A stretch of DNA of 37,881 bases from Rhodocyclaceae bacterium (GTDB lineage: Bacteria; Pseudomonadota; Gammaproteobacteria; Burkholderiales; Rhodocyclaceae), in contig JADFDU010000023.1 in the NCBI GenBank assembly GCA_018262775.1, forward strand, positions 1 through 37,881, in the 5' to 3' direction. A model generated the notes under the pieces. The model had not been told where the DNA came from and did not search any database. It saw only the letters and a program-made list of their open reading frames with translations. Below, in pieces: positions 6,650 through 37,154 of the stretch (position 1 is the stretch's first letter; each line of letters begins with the position of its first letter). Position numbers and translations under genes: made by a program.

Positions 6650-7410
6650 AGCTCGCCACCTGGAACGTCAACTCGCTCAAGGTCCGTTTGCCGCAAGTGC
6701 TGGACTGGCTGGCGGCGAATCAGCCCAATGTTGTCTGCCTGCAGGAAACCAAGCTCGAAGACAGGAATTTTCCTCGCGTCGCCATCGAAGCGGCCGGCTA
6801 CCAGGCTGCATTCGCCGGCCAGAAGACCTACAACGGCGTCGCCATCCTCTCGCGCCTGCCGCTCGGTGACGTGACCATCGGCATCCCCGGCTTTGATGAC
6901 GCGCAGCAACGGCTCATCGCCGCGACTGCCGGCAACGCGCGCATCGTCTGCGCCTATTTTCCGAATGGACAAAGCATCGGTTCGGACAAGTACGCCTACA
7001 AGCTGCGCTGGATCGAAGCGCTGACGGCATGGCTGCGCACGGAGCTGGTGCGGCATCCGCGGCTGGCGCTGCTCGGCGACTACAACATCGCGCCGGAGGC
7101 GCGCGACGTGCATGACCCGGCGGAGTGGGAAGGGCAGGTGCTGTGCTCCGAACCGGAACGCGCCGCCTTCCGGCAGCTGATCGGGCTGGGCCTGCAGGAT
7201 GCCTTCCGGCTCTTCGAGCAGCCGGAAAATATCTACTCCTGGTGGGATTACCGCATGATGGCCTTCCGCCGCAACCGCGGCCTGCGCATCGACCACATCC
7301 TGCTGTCCGACGCACTCGCGCAAGACTGCACCGCCTGCGCGGTGGACAAGGAAGCACGCAAGGCCGAGCGGCCCTCCGATCACGCCCCGGTCGTGGCAAC
7401 GCTGGCATGA
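6646..7410 (+). CDS. xthA: Exodeoxyribonuclease III / AP endonuclease
   Basis: Base-excision repair enzyme: AP-site incision and 3'-5' exonuclease on duplex DNA. It is 254 aa, the typical length. Catalytic landmarks of the EEP superfamily: N7 in TWNVNS, E34 in [13 protein letters not shown] (Asp and Asn of the active site), RIDHIL, and the terminal PSDHAPV (D245, H246). The ATG overlaps the stop of the preceding DUF4124 gene (ATGA). Its own stop overlaps the next start in the same way, suggesting coupled translation of DUF4124, xthA and the Crp/Fnr gene. Confidence 0.96.
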
Positions 7411-8066
7411 GCATACCGTTGCCGGAAATCGAGGCGCAGTATCCGGTGCTGGCGGAACTGCCGCAGAAACTGCGCCGGGAAATCGCCGATACCGCCCAGA
7501 CCGTCACCGTGCCCTCCGGCGCCACGCTCTTCGACGAGCGCCAGCCCTGCCAGGGGTTCCCCTTCGTCCTTGCCGGCGCCATCCGCGTCTCCAAGGTCTC
7601 CGCCTCGGGCCGCGAACTGCCGCTCTATCGCGTCACGCCGGGCGAGACCTGCATCATCACTTCCAGCTGCCTGCTCGGCAACGTCCCCTACAACGCCCGC
7701 GGCACGACGGAGAGCGAAACGGTGCTGGTGCTATTACCGCAGCATGTGTTCATGGCGCTGCTGGGACAGCCCGCCTTCCGCAATTTCATCTTCCATCTTT
7801 TCGCCGAGCGCATGGCCGATCTGATGCGGCTGGTCGAGGAAGTCGCCTTCCACAAACTGGACCAGCGCCTCGCGGCACTGCTGCTGGGCAAGGGCCGCGT
7901 CGTGCATGCCACCCACCAGCAACTCGCCGACGAGCTGGGTAGCGTGCGCGAAATGGTCAGCCGCCTGCTGAAGGGCTTCGCCGAACAGGGGCTGGTTGCC
8001 CTGGGGCGCGAACAGATCGAGATTCGCGATGCGGCCGGCCTGCGTCGCATCGGACAAGCTGTGTAA
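7407..8066 (+). CDS. Crp/Fnr-family transcriptional regulator
   Basis: 219-aa regulator with an N-terminal cyclic-nucleotide-binding-like sensor domain (about 12-125), a dimerisation helix (about 125-155) and a C-terminal Crp-type helix-turn-helix (about 166-190, [19 protein letters not shown]). The canonical cAMP-binding cassette (FGE...PRxAxV) is absent: the equivalent stretch reads [14 protein letters not shown]. The N-terminal Fnr Fe-S cysteine cluster is also absent. Cysteines are C48, C82 and C88; C82/C88 in the sensor loop could be a redox or sulfur-responsive site, which is inference. The gene overlaps xthA by ATGA. Immediately at its stop begins a TGTAA-N6-TTACA palindrome, placing its likely target, the DUF2892 gene, right downstream. 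Confidence 0.9.
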
Positions 8067-28716: not shown

Positions 28717-30258
28717 TCACCCCGGCTCGCCCAGCCGGAAGAAGGTGCGCATCTTGCCGAGCAGGCTGGCGTGCTGGCGCCGCTTCTCCCGCGCCTCGGC
28801 TTCGGCGCCGAGCGCCTCCTGCGCGTCTGCGAGCTGCATGTTGCGCTCGGTGAGGATCGCCGCCAGGTCCTCGGCGATGGCCGGGCGCGAACGGATGATG
28901 TCCTCGAAGCCGGCCTTGTCGAGGCGGTAGCATTCCACCTCGCTCTTTGCCGCGACGGTGGCGCGGCGCGGCTCGCCGGTGAGCATGCCCATCTCGCCGA
29001 AGACGCTGCCGGCGGCGAGCGTCGTCAGCAGGCGGCGCGCGCCGGCCTGCTCGATCCACACTTCGGCCTCGCCCTCGACGAGGATGTAGAGCCAGTGCGC
29101 CACCATGCCCTGGCGCGTGATGACGTCGCCGCGCGCGAACGGCGCATGGACGAGCCGGTCGGCCAGGGCCTTCAGCTCCTCTTCGCTGAAGGCGGCGAAA
29201 ATGCCGACGCCGCGCAGGGCCCTGAGGCGGCGGCCGATCTCTCGCGCGCGCACCTCCGCCCGGTGCGCCTCGTTCTCCTTGATCATGTGCACCGAATATT
29301 CCGGCTCGGCGATGCGGATGCCGCCGCGCTGCAGCGCGGCGAGGACGTGGCTGCGCACGGCGGAGTCGGTCGGATCGTCAGGGCGCGGGTCGATCATCCA
29401 GTAGCGCAAGGCATAGCGGCCGTAGCTCGGGCCGAATTCCATGAGCACGCAGTTCGGCGCCGGCGTGCGCGACACGTTGGGAATGTCGGCGCTGGTTACG
29501 GCCTGCTCGACGGCCTGGATGACGCGCGCCGGCTGCGCGCTGTAATCGACGTTGAACCAGATCCAGCGCCGCCAGGTCTGCGTCGCCTGCTCGGGGCTCC
29601 AGATGACGGTGAACTTGCTCTTCATGAGCAGGCTGTTGGGCACGACGATGGTCTCGCCGTTGCGCGTCTCGATGGCGGTATGGCGCCAGCGAATGTCCAC
29701 CACGCGCCCGGAGACATCGTCGACCTTCACCCAGTCGCCGACCTCGATCGAGCTGTCGAGCTGCAGGGCCAGGCCGCCGAGGATGTTGCCCAGCGTATCC
29801 TGCATGGAGAAGGCGACCACCGCGGTGATCACCGCCGAAGTGGCGACGATGCCGGAGAGGTCGACGCCGGCCAGGCGCATGCGCACCAGGGCAAAGCCAA
29901 CATAGGCGAGGATGACGACGATGTCCTCGACGATGCGCGGCGGCCGCAGCCCCGCGGCCGGCAGCAGCACACGGAAGAGGCACAGGCCGGCCAGGCGGAT
30001 CAGCGCCACGCCGGAACCCACCACGAACAGCTCGTGTGCCGCCGCCGCGCCGACGGAGAGGCCGTGCGCATCGATCACGCCGGCGGCGAACTGTCCCGCC
30101 AGGCAGGCGGCAAACAAGCCCAGGGTGTAGGCGATGGAGCGCCGGTCGCTCGGCCGCAGGGACCACAGCAGGGCCGCCAGCAACAGCGCCGCCGACACCA
30201 CGTAGGGCGACTCCTCGCGCCAGAAATAGGCCCAGGCCGGCTGCAGCGATTCGAACAT
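28717..30258 (-). CDS. MscS-family channel with C-terminal cyclic-nucleotide-binding domain
   Basis: 513-aa membrane protein. About five transmembrane segments (roughly 18-36, 42-62, 75-98, 110-128, 133-165); the last is the MscS pore helix with AFSMQDTLGNILGGLALQLD, then the beta domain (DWVKVDDVSGRVVDIRWRHTAIETRNGE) and the C-terminal vestibule. A cNBD follows (about 350-465) with a full phosphate-binding cassette, FGEMGMLTGEPRRATVA (420-436). A charged coiled-coil tail ends the protein. This matches the bCNG subgroup of the MscS superfamily, reported to be ligand-gated more than tension-gated. The start overlaps the AlgR-like gene by TGATG. Confidence 0.92.
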   Translation of the reverse strand: MFESLQPAWAYFWREESPYVVSAALLLAALLWSLRPSDRRSIAYTLGLFAACLAGQFAAGVIDAHGLSVGAAAAHELFVVGSGVALIRLAGLCLFRVLLPAAGLRPPRIVEDIVVILAYVGFALVRMRLAGVDLSGIVATSAVITAVVAFSMQDTLGNILGGLALQLDSSIEVGDWVKVDDVSGRVVDIRWRHTAIETRNGETIVVPNSLLMKSKFTVIWSPEQATQTWRRWIWFNVDYSAQPARVIQAVEQAVTSADIPNVSRTPAPNCVLMEFGPSYGRYALRYWMIDPRPDDPTDSAVRSHVLAALQRGGIRIAEPEYSVHMIKENEAHRAEVRAREIGRRLRALRGVGIFAAFSEEELKALADRLVHAPFARGDVITRQGMVAHWLYILVEGEAEVWIEQAGARRLLTTLAAGSVFGEMGMLTGEPRRATVAAKSEVECYRLDKAGFEDIIRSRPAIAEDLAAILTERNMQLADAQEALGAEAEAREKRRQHASLLGKMRTFFRLGEPG

Positions 30259-31028
30259 CAGGCTTTGCCCTCGCCGGCAATCACTGCCTTGACGGCGGGC
30301 CATTGCCGGCGCGACACGGGCAGCTTCTCCTCCAGACCCGACAGCAGCACGGCCCAGTGCGTCTCGCCGTCCTCGGCGGCGTTCTTTTCGAAGCCGGCGA
30401 TGGCATCCCGCGCCACCAGGCAGTTACGATGCACGCGGATGAAGCGGATGGCAAACTCCTGCTCCAGGTGGGTGAGGGATTCGTCGAGCAGGTGCTCGCG
30501 CTCACGCGTGCGCGCCGTCACGTACTTCAGTTCGGCCTTGAGGTAGAGGATGTCTGCCACCGGGATCAGCAGGATGCGGCCGCGTTCGGAGACGGAAAGG
30601 TGGCGGCGCGCCTCCGGCGCCAGACTGGCAAGCGCCTCGCGCACCGGCGGCGCGGCACGGCGCGCCTTCTCCAGCGCCGCAGCCAGGCGCTGCGCCCGCA
30701 CGGGCTTGACCAGGTAGTCGATGGCATTCAACTCGAACGCCTGCACCGCGTACTGGTCGTAAGCGGTCGTAAACACCACCGCCGGCGCATGCTCGGCGCC
30801 GGCGAGGTGGCGCGCGAGTTCGATGCCGTCCATCTTCGGCATGCGGATGTCTACCAGTGCGACGTCGGCGGACACCGCCTCCAGCCGTTCGAGCGCCTCG
30901 ATGCCGTTGGCCGCCTCGCCGACGAGTTCGTTGGGCAGCTCGGCGGCGATATCCGCCAGCAGGGCCTTCAGGCGTGCCCGCGCCGGCGCCTCGTCGTCCA
31001 CAATAAACACGCGCAACGGTTCGCTCAT
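30258..31028 (-). CDS. algR: LytTR-family response regulator (AlgR-like)
   Basis: 256-aa two-component regulator. Receiver domain (about 5-125): VFIVDDEAPARARL acidic pair, phospho-acceptor D60 in VALVDIRMPKMDG, FTTAYDQYAVQAFELNAIDYLVKPV with the conserved Thr/Lys. A LytTR DNA-binding domain follows (about 150-250; LLIPVADILYLKAELKYVTA, FIRVHRNCLV). The start at 31028 is preferred over an ATG two codons upstream because AGGAGG lies 7 nt before it. The neighbours (argH, algZ-like kinase, hemCD) reproduce the Pseudomonas algR locus, though regulated genes here are unknown. Confidence 0.9.
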   Translation of the reverse strand: MSEPLRVFIVDDEAPARARLKALLADIAAELPNELVGEAANGIEALERLEAVSADVALVDIRMPKMDGIELARHLAGAEHAPAVVFTTAYDQYAVQAFELNAIDYLVKPVRAQRLAAALEKARRAAPPVREALASLAPEARRHLSVSERGRILLIPVADILYLKAELKYVTARTREREHLLDESLTHLEQEFAIRFIRVHRNCLVARDAIAGFEKNAAEDGETHWAVLLSGLEEKLPVSRRQWPAVKAVIAGEGKA

Positions 31029-31050
31029 GGTCATGCCTCCTGAAGGACCG

Positions 31051-31147
31051 CCCCGAAGGCGGCATGCGCCCCCTTGGGGGGGTGAAGCAGGGGTTTCGCG
31101 GAGCACCGCTCCGCGCCTGCGCAACGGGCCGGCTGTGCAAAGCCGGC
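31051..31147. repeat. Cluster of inverted repeats between the sensor and regulator genes
   Basis: Within the 148 bp separating the two-component genes are three palindromes: CCCCC-TT-GGGGG (31069-31080), CGCGGAGC-ACC-GCTCCGCG (31097-31115) and GCCGGCT-N6-AGCCGGC (31128-31147). They look like intergenic palindromic elements and could attenuate or protect the transcript between kinase and regulator. Confidence 0.6.
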
Positions 31148-31176
31148 ACTCCTCGAACGAAAGTGAGCGTGGGGGC

Positions 31177-32184
31177 TCATGTTCCTTCCCGGCGATAGGG
31201 CAGGCGGATGGTCACGCGAAACACGCCTGCTTCCGTCTCGGTTTCCAGTCGTGCCTCGAGATCGTAGAACAGCATCAACCGCTCGCGGATGTTGTCGAGC
31301 GCCATGCGGTTGCCGGCGTGCTGCGCATGCTCGCCATGGTAGGGATTGGACAGCGCAATGCGGATCTCCTCGCCCTCGCGCGCCGCGCGCAGCGTCACCG
31401 TCACCGGTTCCGGAGACGGCTCGACACCATGGTAGACGGCGTTCTCCAGCAAGGGTTGCAACATGAGCGGCGGCACCTGCGCGTCCAGCGGGCAGGCGTC
31501 GACGTCCCATGCCACGTGCAGCCTGTCGCCCAGACGCAGATTCTCCAGCTCGAGGTACTGCCGGCACAGTCCGAATTCCTCCTTCAGCGTCACCAGATCC
31601 TTGTTCTCGCCCATCAGCACGCGGAACAGGTCCGAGAGTTCCTCCAGCGCCTGTTCGGCGCGGCGCGGATCGGAGCGGATGACGCCGAGCACGGCATTCA
31701 GGCTGTTGAAGAGGAAATGCGGGCGGATGCGCGCCGTCAGCGCCATCAGGCGCGCCTCGGCGACGGCCGGCGAGAAGGCGCGGTTGCGCAAGTCGAAATA
31801 GGCCAGGATGGCCAGTGCCACCGCCGCGCCCCACAGGGCGGCGCGCGGCAGGGCTGCCAGCGGCAGGCCGGGCGGGTTGAGCAGGGCATGGAACAGTGCG
31901 GCGAGCAAGGCGCAGGCACCGGTCACGGCGGCCAGCGCCACGCCATACGGCAGGCGCGCCAGCCATTTGCCCGTCGCGTACAACAGTACCACGCAGGCGA
32001 TCAGCGGCGGCTCGACCACGGCGGCGAGTTCGACCATTTCCTGCGGCAGGCGCGCCAGTTCGGCGTTGCGCACCAGCGCCGCACACAGGGCCAGCAGGTT
32101 CACCGCCAGCAGGCTGCGCAACATGACGCCGAGATTGCCGAAGTCCGGCAGGCGTGTCGGCTGGGGGTTTTGCCGTATACTCAT
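31177..32184 (-). CDS. algZ: LytS-type sensor histidine kinase (AlgZ-like)
   Basis: 335-aa membrane sensor. Four hydrophobic helices (about 20-38, 55-72, 80-101, 114-131) without an extracytoplasmic domain, then a His_kinase (LytS) module: [19 protein letters not shown] with phospho-acceptor H156, the N-box [17 protein letters not shown], and a G-box [12 protein letters not shown]. This is the unorthodox kinase type that pairs with LytTR regulators, and the AlgR-like partner is next downstream (148 bp away, past an inverted-repeat cluster). Divergent from argH with only 38 bp between starts. Confidence 0.9.
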
Positions 32185-32222
32185 TTGCTGCCCTGAACAC
32201 CATAGTAGTATCCGGAACGATT

Positions 32223-33617
32223 ATGACAGATCACAGCAGTGATTCCAGTGACAAGGCCTGGTCCGGGCGCTTCAGTGAGCCGGTGGCGGATCTCGTCAAG
32301 CGCTATACGGCCTCCGTGTCCTTCGACCGGCGCCTGGCCTTCCACGATATCCGCGGTTCGCTTGCCCACGCGCGCATGCTGGCGCAGCAGGGCATCCTCG
32401 GCGAGGACGACCTCACCGCCATCGAGCGCGGCATGGCGGCGATCAAGCTGGAAATCGAGAACGGGGAGTTCGACTGGTCGCTCGACGACGAGGACGTGCA
32501 TCTCAACATCGAGAAGCGCCTCACCGCCCTCGTCGGCGACGCCGGCAAGCGCCTGCACACCGGCCGCTCGCGCAACGACCAGGTCGCCACCGACATCCGC
32601 CTGTGGCTGCGCGAGGAGATCGACGGCCTCGACGCCCTGCTGCGCAGCTACCAGGGGGCGCTGCTCGACCTGGCCGCAGCGCATGCCGCCACGCCGATGC
32701 CGGGCTTCACGCACCTGCAGGTGGCGCAGCCGGTCACCTTCGGCCACCACCTGATGGCCTATTTCGAGATGGCGGCGCGCGACCGCGAGCGCCTCGCCGA
32801 CTGCCGCAAGCGGGTCAACCGCCTGCCGCTGGGCGCAGCCGCGCTGGCCGGCACCTCCTATCCGATCGATCGTGCGTTCGTCGCCCGCGAACTGGGCTTC
32901 GACGGCGTCTGCGCGAACTCCCTCGATGCCGTCAGCGACCGTGATTTCGCCATCGAGTTCACCGCGGCGGCGGCGCTGGTCATGACCCACATCTCGCGCT
33001 TCTCCGAAGAGCTGATCCTGTGGATGAACCCGCGTGTGGGCTTCATCGACCTCGCCGACCGCTTCTGCACCGGCTCCTCGATCATGCCGCAGAAGAAGAA
33101 TCCCGACGTGCCCGAGCTGGCGCGCGGCAAGAGCGGCCGCGTCTATGGCCACCTGATGGGCCTGCTGACGCTCATGAAGGGCCAGCCGCTGGCCTACAAC
33201 AAGGACAACCAGGAAGACAAGGAGCCGCTCTTCGACACGGTCGACACCGTGCGCGACACGCTGGCCATCTTCGCCGATCTCGTCGGCGGCATTCACGTGC
33301 GCCCCGAAGCCATGCGCGCGGCGCTGCGGCAGGGCTATGCCACCGCCACCGACCTCGCCGATTACCTGGTGAAGAAGGGCCTGCCCTTCCGCGACGCCCA
33401 CGAAGCAGTGGCCCTCGCCGTGCGCGCCGCCGAGGAGAAAGGCTGCGACCTGGCCGAACTCGGCCTCGACGCGCTGCGCCGCTTCTCGCCGCTCATCGAC
33501 GAGGACGCCCTCGCCGTGCTCAGCGTGGAAGGCTCGCTCGCCTCGCGCAACCATGTTGGCGGCACCGCGCCGGAACAGGTGCGCGCGGCGATCGCCGCGG
33601 CGCGGAAAACCCTGTAG
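32223..33617 (+). CDS. argH: Argininosuccinate lyase
   Basis: Last step of arginine synthesis: argininosuccinate to arginine + fumarate. 464 aa. Landmarks: [10 protein letters not shown] start, [32 protein letters not shown], and the fumarase/lyase superfamily signature [12 protein letters not shown] with the catalytic Ser. The 38-bp gap to algZ means the two promoters must overlap. The stop is followed at once by a palindromic element, then the first kinase gene. Confidence 0.97.
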
Positions 33618-33678
33618 GTCAGTCCCCAGCCCGACAGAAAACCTGCAAGTAAACATGTCGGGCTGAAGCCCGACCTAC
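33614..33678. repeat. Palindromic (REP-like) element between argH and kinase 1
   Basis: Nested inverted repeats: GTAGGTC (33614-33620) with GACCTAC (33672-33678), AGCCCGACA (33628-33636) with TGTCGGGCT (33656-33664), and the compact TCGGGCTGAAGCCCGA (33658-33673). It starts at the argH stop and ends 5 nt before the kinase ATG. GTCGGGCTTCAGCCCGAC-like palindromes are common dispersed elements in related genomes; it may also terminate argH. Confidence 0.75.
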
Positions 33679-33683
33679 AGATC

Positions 33684-34964
<1,281 letters not shown>

Positions 34965-34971
34965 AGGCGCG

Positions 34972-36273
34972 ATGGAGACCCCGGAGAAGATCGGCAAGTA
35001 CGACGTCCGCAGCCATCTCGGCGAGGGCGCCACCAGCACGGTCTGGCTGGGCTGGGATCCGTTCGCCCAGCGTGAGGTGGCGATCAAGGTCATCGCCCAG
35101 GAAGTGCTGCGCGACAAGGAGCGCGGGCGCCTTTATCGCCACCTGCTGGTCAACGAAGCCTCCCTCGCCGGCAAGCTGATGCACCCGCACATCGTGCAGA
35201 TCTTCGACGCCGTGGTCGACGATGCGCAAAGCTACATCGTCATGGAGTACGTCGCCGGTGGCACCCTCGAACCCTTCTGCACGCCGGACAACCTGCTGCC
35301 GCTCGACCGGCTGGTGGAGATCGTCTTCAAATGCACGCGGGCGCTGGACTACGCCTACCATCTGGGCATCACCCACCGCGACATCAAGCCGGCCAACATC
35401 CTTCTCGCCGCATCTGACAACCTCGGCGGGGACATCAAGATCTCGGATTTCGGCGCGGCGCTGTTCACCAGTGGTGACCAGACGCGCACCCAGGTCTCGG
35501 GTATCGGCTCGCCCGCCTACATGTCGCCGCAACAGGTGCGTGAAATGCCGCTCAACCACCAGACCGACATCTATTCTCTCGGCGTCGTCATGTACCAGCT
35601 GCTCACCGGCCGCCTGCCCTTCCAGGCGAGCAACAACTACAGCATGGTGTACCAGATCACCCATGACGCACCGCCGCCGCCTTCGGATTTCCGCCGCGAG
35701 ATCCCGGAGAACCTCGACGCCGTCGTCGCCCGCGCCATGCAGAAAGATCTTGACGCGCGTTACACCAGTTGGGAGGAGTTCTCACACGACCTGGCGCAGG
35801 CCTTCCGCAACAAACAGCTGAAGGCGCGCGAACGCGATTTCGCCGACACGGAAAAGTACGAGACCCTGCGCGACCTACCCTTCTTCACCGAATTCAGCGA
35901 CGTCGAGATCTGGGAGGTGGTGCGTTTCTCCGACTGGAACCAGGTGGCGCCCGAGACCGTCATCATGAAGGACGGCGAACCGGGCGACTATTTCTGCTTC
36001 CTCGCCGAAGGCGAGGTGAGGATCAACAAGCGCGGGCGCATCCTCAGCATCCTCACCCCCGGCGACTGCTTCGGCGAAATGGCCGTCATCAGCAGGAGCC
36101 ACAGCAGCCGCAACGCCGACGTCGTCGCGCAGACACCGGCGAAGATCATCACCATCCGCGGCGACGCGCTACGGCAAGCCTCGGAAGTCTGCCGCATGCA
36201 TTTCTACGCCGCCTTCCTCGAAGTGCTGGCCAACCGCCTGGCGCTGGCCAACGCGCGTCTCGCCTCGGTTTGA
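34972..36273 (+). CDS. Ser/Thr protein kinase with C-terminal cNBD-like domain (kinase 2)
   Basis: 433 aa, tandem paralogue of kinase 1, 7 nt downstream, sharing the whole architecture. Kinase: GEGATSTV, VAIK (K39), HRDIKPAN (D137, N142), DFG (D159), GIGSPAYMSPQQV, SLGVVMYQLLTG. cNBD-like part (about 303-420) with FFTEFSDVEIWEVVRFSDW and FGEMAVISRSHSSRNADV. The two proteins differ most in the alphaC region and the cassette loop, suggesting different partners or ligands. It ends in a TGATG overlap with a fructosamine-kinase-like gene, so the three genes are likely one operon. Confidence 0.93.
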   Translation: METPEKIGKYDVRSHLGEGATSTVWLGWDPFAQREVAIKVIAQEVLRDKERGRLYRHLLVNEASLAGKLMHPHIVQIFDAVVDDAQSYIVMEYVAGGTLEPFCTPDNLLPLDRLVEIVFKCTRALDYAYHLGITHRDIKPANILLAASDNLGGDIKISDFGAALFTSGDQTRTQVSGIGSPAYMSPQQVREMPLNHQTDIYSLGVVMYQLLTGRLPFQASNNYSMVYQITHDAPPPPSDFRREIPENLDAVVARAMQKDLDARYTSWEEFSHDLAQAFRNKQLKARERDFADTEKYETLRDLPFFTEFSDVEIWEVVRFSDWNQVAPETVIMKDGEPGDYFCFLAEGEVRINKRGRILSILTPGDCFGEMAVISRSHSSRNADVVAQTPAKIITIRGDALRQASEVCRMHFYAAFLEVLANRLALANARLASV

Positions 36274-37154
36274 TGCCACTGGGCGAATCGCTCTCGGCTG
36301 AGATCAGTCGCGTCTCGGGTCGTCCGTTCCATGCGTTGTCCAGCCGTGAGGCGAGCGGCGGCTGCATCCATCGCGCGTGGGTGCTTGAAGGCGACGGGGC
36401 AAACTGGTTCGTAAAACTGAACGACCCGACAGCCCTGTCGATGTTCGAGGCAGAAAGCGATGGACTGGTGGCCTTGGCCGGGGCGAACGCATTCCGCATG
36501 CCGCGGCCGCTGTGCTGCGGCGTGATCGACGGGCAGGCGTATCTCGTATTGGAACATCTGCACCTGCGGCCGGTCGCTGAACACGTCGGTGCCATCGCCT
36601 GCGGCCGCGCGCTGGCGGCGTTGCACCTAAGCCGTGGCGCGCATTACGGCTGGCGCCGCGACAACTTCATCGGCGCCACGCCGCAAATCAACCCGCAGAG
36701 CGACAGCTGGCCGCGCTTCTTCGCTACGGCGCGCCTGCTGCCGCAGGTGAGACGCGCCGCTACACACGGGCGGCAACTGCAGGACAAGGGAGCGTTATTG
36801 GCGGAAAAGTTACCAGCATTTTTTCTCGACTATCGTGCCCAGCCGAGTCTGCTGCACGGTGACCTGTGGCATGGCAACGCGGCAATGTGCGGCGACGCGC
36901 CGGCCGTCTTCGATCCGGCCGTGTATTTCGGCGACCGCGAGACGGACCTGGCGATGACGGAATTGTTCGGCGGATTTCCGCAGGCGTTTTATGCCGCCTA
37001 TCGCGAGGCCTGGCCGCTGGCGGAAGGCTACGAGTCGCGCAAGACACTCTACAACCTCTACCACGTCCTCAACCATCTCAACCTGTTCGGCGCCGGCTAC
37101 CTGCGCCAGGCAGAGCGGATGATCGACCGGCTGCTGGCCGAATTGCGCGGTTAG
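36273..37154 (+). CDS. Fructosamine/ketosamine-3-kinase family protein
   Basis: 293-aa APH-fold kinase of the fructosamine kinase family (YniA type), which phosphorylates sugar adducts on protein lysines so that they fall off. Landmarks: N-lobe WFVKLN (K48), LVLEHLHL, HYGWRRDNFIGATPQ (typical), the catalytic LLHGDLWHGN (D197, N202), and VFDPAVYFGDRETDLAMTELFGGF (metal-binding Asp214). The start shares a base with the kinase 2 stop, so translation is coupled. A GC-rich hairpin spans its stop codon (37145-37160). Confidence 0.9.
   Translation: MPLGESLSAEISRVSGRPFHALSSREASGGCIHRAWVLEGDGANWFVKLNDPTALSMFEAESDGLVALAGANAFRMPRPLCCGVIDGQAYLVLEHLHLRPVAEHVGAIACGRALAALHLSRGAHYGWRRDNFIGATPQINPQSDSWPRFFATARLLPQVRRAATHGRQLQDKGALLAEKLPAFFLDYRAQPSLLHGDLWHGNAAMCGDAPAVFDPAVYFGDRETDLAMTELFGGFPQAFYAAYREAWPLAEGYESRKTLYNLYHVLNHLNLFGAGYLRQAERMIDRLLAELRG

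What the first reader, a model, noticed from the sequence alone, without database searches (positions are those of the whole stretch)
28717..36273. Three proteins with C-terminal cNBD-like domains around a two-component pair: possible cyclic-nucleotide signalling cluster
Seen: an MscS/bCNG-type channel with an intact cassette (FGEMGMLTGEPRRATVA) and two Ser/Thr kinases with related C-terminal domains lie within 7.6 kb, together with a LytS/LytTR pair. Known: bCNG channels respond to cyclic nucleotides; Hanks kinases with a C-terminal cNBD are rare compared with PASTA or WD/TPR types. Inference: one ligand could control ion flux and protein phosphorylation together, with the two-component pair controlling channel expression (its gene overlaps the regulator gene).
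Basis: partly seen in the sequence, partly recalled or inferred. Interest (0 to 1): 0.75.

Follow-up and report, generated by a model that had tools for sequence, protein, structure and literature searches.

The report
Bacterial kinases with cAMP-type switch domains
This betaproteobacterial gene cluster encodes two protein kinases that each end in a cyclic-nucleotide-binding domain, near an ion-channel gene with the same kind of domain; the kinases are predicted to be switched by cyclic AMP, which would give bacteria a one-piece counterpart of the cAMP-controlled kinases of animals, though no binding or switching has been tested.

Summary
In detail: an MscS-type channel and two Hanks-type Ser/Thr kinases (K1, K2), each with a C-terminal cNMP-binding domain, lie in 7.6 kb around an AlgZ/AlgR-like pair. 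The "cluster" reading is only partly right. Channel and kinases sit on opposite strands with algR, algZ and argH between. Some pair of the genome's cNBD genes falls this close in 0.28 of random placements. The channel adjoins algR in 11 of 43 kinase loci with room, and in 0 of 9 channel loci from other genomes. The kinases' constant companions are argH (74 of 80 loci) and a fructosamine-3-kinase gene whose start overlaps the kinase stop in 46 of 54.
The stronger finding is the kinase family. Catalytic residues are invariant in 72 of 72 rows; cassette Glu and Arg are kept in 71 each. In other families of the order, related kinases lie within 50 kb of a CHASE2 cyclase in 14 of 41 genomes that have both (14 of 20 on one contig). 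The argH-linked clade carries an R-x-A-D cassette (97 of 104, against 2 of 37 elsewhere). Best reading: cAMP-responsive one-chain kinases; ligand and effect untested.

The parts
28717..30258 (-). MscS-type channel with C-terminal cNBD (bCNG-like), 513 aa; start overlaps the algR stop (TGATG)
   Evidence: Pfam PF00924 + PF00027; overlap read
28951..29001 (-). phosphate-binding cassette of the channel, FGEMGMLTGEPRRATVA, Glu and Arg kept
   Evidence: sequence, coordinates
30258..31034 (-). AlgR/LytTR-type response regulator
   Evidence: PF00072 + PF04397 (on the ORF to 31124)
31177..32184 (-). AlgZ/LytS-type sensor histidine kinase
   Evidence: PF06580
32223..33617 (+). argH, argininosuccinate lyase; conserved upstream neighbour of the kinases
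   Evidence: TIGR00838 606 bits, cut-off 279.5 (on the ORF from 32154); next to the kinase in 74 of 80 named loci
33684..34964 (+). K1: Hanks-type Ser/Thr kinase with C-terminal cNBD, 426 aa
   Evidence: PF00069 158 bits, PF00027 52.6 bits
34761..34814 (+). K1 cassette FGEMAYLGEEAGTRGADV
34972..36273 (+). K2: Hanks-type Ser/Thr kinase with C-terminal cNBD, 433 aa, 7 bp after K1
   Evidence: PF00069 167.9 bits, PF00027 63.7 bits; model pLDDT 87.2
36070..36123 (+). K2 cassette FGEMAVISRSHSSRNADV
36273..37154 (+). fructosamine-3-kinase family protein; start overlaps the K2 stop (TGATG)
   Evidence: PF03881 327.5 bits (on the shorter stretch from 36297); overlap, kept in 46 of 54 loci

Best explanation
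K1 and K2 are Hanks-type Ser/Thr kinases joined in one chain to a C-terminal cyclic-nucleotide-binding domain, and they are predicted to be switched by cAMP. Shown here: intact kinase catalytic residues, an intact cassette (Glu, Arg and the beta2-beta3 Gly), a close argH-K1-K2-fructosamine-3-kinase layout, and kinship with kinases that lie near a CHASE2 cyclase in other families of the order. Predicted: the cNBD fold. Inferred: when the cyclase raises cAMP, the ligand fills the C-terminal pocket, the helices behind the barrel move and change their hold on the kinase lobe, the kinase autophosphorylates its loop (Thr173 in K2 is invariant) and phosphorylates targets; FHA and PP2C proteins coded elsewhere in the genome could read and erase the mark. 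The channel is likely a second, separately encoded cNMP effector, not a fixed partner.
Confidence: 0.55

Rival explanations
1. The kinase cNBDs bind a cyclic mononucleotide or related ligand other than cAMP (cGMP, a pyrimidine cNMP, a nucleoside); the R-x-A-D cassette of the argH clade marks a ligand change.
Against: Cassette Glu and Arg are kept; one clade change counts once; the genome codes adenylyl-type cyclases (recalled residue rules) and a Crp-like protein with an intact cassette; structural rank says nothing on ligand.
Confidence: 0.21
2. The cNBDs of K1/K2 are structural (dimer or docking) modules without ligand; the cassette is a relic.
For: cNBD-fold domains without cNMP ligand are known (Fnr type, recalled); in this genome about 5 of 15 cNBDs lack the cassette Arg (my reading of the sequences).
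Against: Glu and Arg in 71 of 72 rows each while neighbouring cassette positions vary freely.
Confidence: 0.14
3. One reading: AlgZR expresses the channel, and channel plus kinases form one dedicated cyclic-nucleotide circuit at this locus.
For: TGATG overlap algR-channel; channel next to algR in 11 loci that also hold the kinase; channel and kinase co-occur in 22 of 150 genomes, Fisher p 4e-6, not corrected for kinship.
Against: No channel found in 32 of 43 loci with room; near a kinase only in the window's genome among 22 with both, 19 of which have them on different contigs; AlgR/AlgZ within about 1.5 kb in 0 of 9 other channel loci; chance proximity 0.28.
Confidence: 0.1
4. The kinases serve arginine synthesis or protein deglycation, with ArgH or the fructosamine-3-kinase as target or partner; the ligand is secondary.
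For: argH adjacent in 74 of 80 loci; fructosamine-3-kinase start overlaps the kinase stop in 46 of 54.
Against: All from one clade, so one ancestral placement may explain it; related kinases are elsewhere; no target data.
Confidence: 0.15

Closest known systems
Eukaryotic cGMP-dependent protein kinase (PKG) and PKA holoenzyme
   Same: Ser/Thr kinase under a cNBD with cassette Glu and Arg; PKG 9p74 is the top solved sequence match of the K2 cNBD (whole-sequence E 7e-18, summed over several weak cNBD matches, none passing alone)
   Different: Here the kinase comes first and one cNBD follows; PKG has several cNBDs before the kinase; K1/K2 kinase lobes are PknB-like; regulation untested
Bacterial Hanks-type kinases of the PknB group
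   Same: Kinase lobe 35-36% identical over 255-260 residues of PknB
   Different: NF033483 (PASTA kinase) scores 260/268 against a cut-off of 450; no PASTA domain in the Pfam scan; Gln replaces the APE-type Glu
Bacterial CNB-kinase fusions noted by Kannan et al. 2007 (PMC2246266, passages of Table 1 seen)
   Same: Row 23 notes bacterial CNB domains attached to 'kinases'
   Different: Kind of kinase not stated there; no family, synteny or mechanism in the passages seen
Planctomycetota Ser/Thr kinases surveyed in 2024 (PMC11032199, passages seen)
   Same: One passage implies that some carry a cyclic-nucleotide-binding domain
   Different: Domain order, cassette and context are not in the passages seen; other phylum
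bCNG channels (Caldwell 2010, Malcolm 2012; titles only, seen in a reference list)
   Same: MscS beta-domain plus C-terminal cNBD
   Different: Nothing tested; placed behind algR in some relatives
AlgZ/AlgR (LytS/LytTR) pair by argH and hemC
   Same: Domain make-up and argH-algZ-algR-hemC order (recalled from Pseudomonas)
   Different: Channel gene added behind algR in some relatives

Membership tests
Hanks-type Ser/Thr kinase | catalytic Lys, alphaC Glu, HRD Asp, catalytic-loop Asn, DFG Asp | tested here: met
   72 of 72 rows each
Hanks-type Ser/Thr kinase | APE-type Glu at the end of the activation segment | tested here: not met
   Gln in K1, K2 and 50 of 72 rows in all, Glu in 22; Pfam Pkinase is met far above cut-off, so I take it as a departure within the fold family, not an exclusion
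PASTA kinase (NF033483) | score over NCBIfam cut-off | tested here: not met
   259.9 and 267.7 against 450
cNMP-binding domain, ligand-competent | Pfam PF00027 over cut-off with cassette Glu and Arg | tested here: met
cNMP-binding domain, ligand-competent | measured binding | not testable with these tools
   none
PKG/PKA-type cyclic-nucleotide-dependent kinase | cNBDs before the kinase in the chain (PKG) or on a separate regulatory subunit (PKA) | tested here: not met
   kinase first, one C-terminal cNBD
PKG/PKA-type cyclic-nucleotide-dependent kinase | activity changed by cAMP or cGMP | not testable with these tools
   none; works-like claim only
bCNG channel | MscS beta-domain with C-terminal cNBD | tested here: met
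   PF00924 63.6 bits, PF00027 74.4 bits
bCNG channel | ion flux gated by cyclic nucleotide | not testable with these tools
   none
AlgZR/LytSR two-component system | His_kinase PF06580 sensor and LytTR regulator | tested here: met

The most novel reading that the evidence does not exclude
A lineage of betaproteobacteria uses one-chain, cyclic-nucleotide-gated Ser/Thr kinases, the bacterial counterpart of PKA/PKG. The family began near a CHASE2 adenylate cyclase with its own phosphodiesterase, PP2C and FHA reader, then moved to argH, duplicated in tandem, changed its phosphate cassette to R-x-A-D (a new ligand or set point) and became coupled to a fructosamine-3-kinase, so that a cyclic nucleotide controls protein repair or arginine flow by phosphorylation.
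Probability: 0.18. Interest if true: 0.78.

Novelty: new variant of a known kind. Interest (0 to 1): 0.5.

Why it matters
To my knowledge (recalled) cAMP in bacteria acts mainly through Crp-type transcription factors. A kinase family common in one bacterial order, with an intact cNMP pocket and often near an adenylate cyclase, would make direct second-messenger control of protein phosphorylation in bacteria testable with two purified proteins. My kinase searches listed no experimental study of a bacterial kinase with a C-terminal cNBD in the open-licence library, which lacks most subscription journals. The clade-wide cassette change also gives a natural test of how cNBDs change ligand.

Tried and rejected
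Clustering of cNBDs as evidence in itself: rejected, chance 0.28 for one pair. The 0.007 for three in 7.3 kb does not apply, because K1/K2 are tandem copies.

Channel as fixed partner of AlgZR or of the kinases: rejected as general.

Rarity of kinase-cNBD: rejected for this order (54 of 150).

Structure for the inter-domain switch: inconclusive, as the linker is low-confidence. The 50 rows listed cover the kinase lobe only (one row reaches residue 298), so nothing is concluded on whole-chain matches.

Literature: ten searches used. Searches found 0 papers; one search found one, a Planctomycetota kinase survey (passages seen) that implies cNBDs on some kinases there; two searches listed no study of such a kinase (of PMC12088040, on PP2C, passages seen); two searches concerned the channel; one search found Kannan 2007.

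Limits: the 80 named loci are the best 80 of 108 by likeness to K2, so they lean to the argH clade. Of 142 kinase ORFs one was dropped by length; identical rows were merged to 137 for the tree, which used the quick method. The 37 non-argH rows hold 4 repeats of genes fetched twice (33 distinct). The cassette pattern could not be read in 3 of 141. The CHASE2-cyclase list holds some distant matches (35-43% identity), and the far cases G024 and G139 rest on such. Of cNBDs without cassette Arg, C10:32300 and C52 have an Arg shifted by a few places; I counted the first as lacking and the second as kept. Cluster make-up was scanned with Pfam in the window's genome only (plus two genes of L132); in other genomes neighbours of the cyclase were named by sequence look. 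The cyclase substrate residues are recalled rules.
Full report
What is there. In 28717-36273 the window holds, on the minus strand, algZ-algR-channel and, divergently on the plus strand, argH-K1-K2 and then a fructosamine-3-kinase gene. Pfam calls cNMP_binding (PF00027) above cut-off in channel, K1 and K2, the MscS beta-domain in the channel, Pkinase in K1 and K2, and His_kinase and Response_reg/LytTR in the pair. The channel most likely starts at 30258, where TGATG joins it to algR. K1 and K2 are 7 bp apart, and K2 and the fructosamine-3-kinase gene share TGATG. So there are two operon-like units, not one.

Is the grouping more than chance? The assembly has 15 cNBD matches in 3.09 Mb. K1 and K2 are 60% identical neighbours, so I count them as one event. 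Random placement puts some pair of 14 places within 5.5 kb in 0.28 of trials, 0.12 for 9 intact places. By itself the grouping means little.

Is it conserved? A scan of one-per-species genomes with K2 kept the best 80 of 108 related loci. The kinase lies next to argH in 74 of 80, in tandem in 22, and with a fructosamine-3-kinase gene in 54 of 71 argH loci with room. In 46 of those 54 the fructosamine-3-kinase start overlaps the kinase stop: 34 by four bases, 12 as TGATG. The channel is next to algR in 11 of 43 loci with at least 1.7 kb of room and was not found in 32. Seven of the 11 are close to the window's channel (79-85% identical) and four are more distant (50-59%). In a 150-genome sample of the order the channel is in 30, the kinase in 54, both in 22. 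Of the 22, only 3 have them on one contig, and only the window's genome has them close (the others about 40 and 212 kb apart); the assemblies are mostly in many contigs, so neighbours could be missed. Of 29 other genomes with the channel the best 9 loci were fetched, and 0 of 9 has AlgR or AlgZ within about 1.5 kb. The channel-kinase grouping is thus a local arrangement of some relatives, by their record titles mostly Rhodocyclales and other betaproteobacteria.

The kinase family. 120 of 120 listed database relatives carry both kinase and cNMP domains (the first is the window's own, and only the 8000 candidates sharing most words were scored). It is common in this order (54 of 150, E <= 1e-60, K2 query) and scarce in the phylum (3 of 299, E <= 1e-80, K1 query, the window's genome included). 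A quick tree of 137 rows puts all 104 argH-linked kinases in one clade (SH-aLRT 100), split into a K1 branch (23 rows, 100) and a K2-containing branch (81 rows, 85); 33 other rows lie outside. The order of branching among the argH clade, a 21-row branch and a 6-row branch is open, and the root is a midpoint. This fits one placement at argH followed by tandem duplication and loss of one copy in many, which is inference.

Are the parts intact? In a 72-row alignment (2 window, 59 locus, 11 database rows, picked for spread; at least two pairs are one gene fetched twice) catalytic Lys39, Glu62, Asp137, Asn142 and Asp159 are invariant; loop Thr173 too. Gln replaces the APE-type Glu in 50 rows, K1 and K2 included. 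In the cNBD the cassette Glu is kept in 71 (Asp in L108), the Arg in 71 (His in L098) and Gly338 of the beta2-beta3 loop in 70. Kannan et al. 2007 (PMC2246266, passages seen) report that this Arg holds the phosphate and co-evolves with a glycine in that loop. As an inner control, about five of the 15 cNBDs of the genome lack the Arg by my reading, among them the fourth one in the window; three of the five are Crp-type by Pfam, two were not scanned. The argH clade differs at one cassette place: R-x-A-D in 97 of 104 rows against 2 of 37 elsewhere (33 distinct). That is one inherited change, not 97, with Ser in the four rows of the Denitromonas group.

Where does the ligand come from? The genome has 5 class III cyclase matches. 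Contig C15 (L121) holds CHASE2-Ser/Thr kinase, PP2C, FHA, CHASE2-cyclase, class-II phosphodiesterase-like, cNBD-rhodanese, a type II/IV secretion ATPase and GAF-HD genes in a row. Both cyclases that I read keep the substrate Lys, with Thr or Asp at the second place, which I recall as adenylyl-type (sequences). In the order sample the CHASE2 cyclase (E <= 1e-80) is in 69 of 150, and in 41 of the 54 kinase genomes (Fisher p 3e-8, not corrected for kinship). In 14 of these 41 the nearest pair is under 50 kb (12 under 30 kb); 6 more are on one contig at 58-613 kb, and 21 have them on different contigs. Random placement would give 0.025-0.073 per genome. The near cases are in 9 families, the far in 4. 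Twelve of the 14 nearest kinases are in the 21-row branch, one (G132) lies outside it and one (G023) is not in the tree. Any class III cyclase: 52 of 54 against 58 of 96. Against the reading: this linkage is not of the argH clade; in the window's genome the two are on different contigs.

Mechanism. I commit to cAMP-responsive one-chain kinases (0.55). Shown: domain make-up, intact active site and cassette, kinship with cyclase-linked kinases, close gene layout. Inferred: ligand identity, direction of the switch, targets, role of FHA and PP2C. The channel is likely another cNMP effector of the same cell.

Novelty. CNB domains attached to bacterial kinases were tabulated in 2007 (kind of kinase not stated in the passage seen), and a 2024 survey implies them on Planctomycetota Ser/Thr kinases (PMC11032199, passages seen), so the combination is known. 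I saw the order-wide family, the cyclase linkage, the argH/fructosamine-3-kinase placement and the cassette change in none of the titles, abstract starts and passages that my ten searches and four paper look-ups showed; the library lacks most subscription journals.

Noticed in passing
window 7125-8066 (+): Crp-type regulator with a cNBD (PF00027 43.6 bits) whose cassette lacks the Arg; likely not a cNMP binder.
   Followed up: partly
window 33617-33684: Palindrome (CATGTCGGGCTGAAGCCCGACC, REP-like by look) between argH and K1, which could lower read-through into the kinases.
   Followed up: no
L121 698-13252 (G000 contig C15): Eight signalling genes in a row: CHASE2-kinase, PP2C, FHA, CHASE2-cyclase, class-II phosphodiesterase-like, cNBD-rhodanese, GAF/T2SSE ATPase, GAF-HD; in other genomes a pilin-like gene (by sequence look) and kinase-cNBD genes lie near such a cyclase.
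   Followed up: partly
L122 8280-9680 (G000 contig C55): Third kinase-cNBD of the genome, 42% identical to K2, divergent to grpE and next to a thioredoxin gene.
   Followed up: partly
L127 2779-3735 (G000 contig C52): cNBD-GGDEF fusion with an unusual cassette (Arg shifted), a possible cNMP to c-di-GMP link.
   Followed up: no
window 36273-37154 (+): Fructosamine-3-kinase gene whose start overlaps the kinase stop in 46 of 54 loci; a more constant link than the channel.
   Followed up: partly
L132/L133, L134/L135, L140: In three other genomes kinase-cNBD genes lie on both sides of a succinyl-CoA ligase gene pair (named from sequence, not scanned); in two of them the CHASE2 cyclase is within 12 kb of one kinase.
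   Followed up: no
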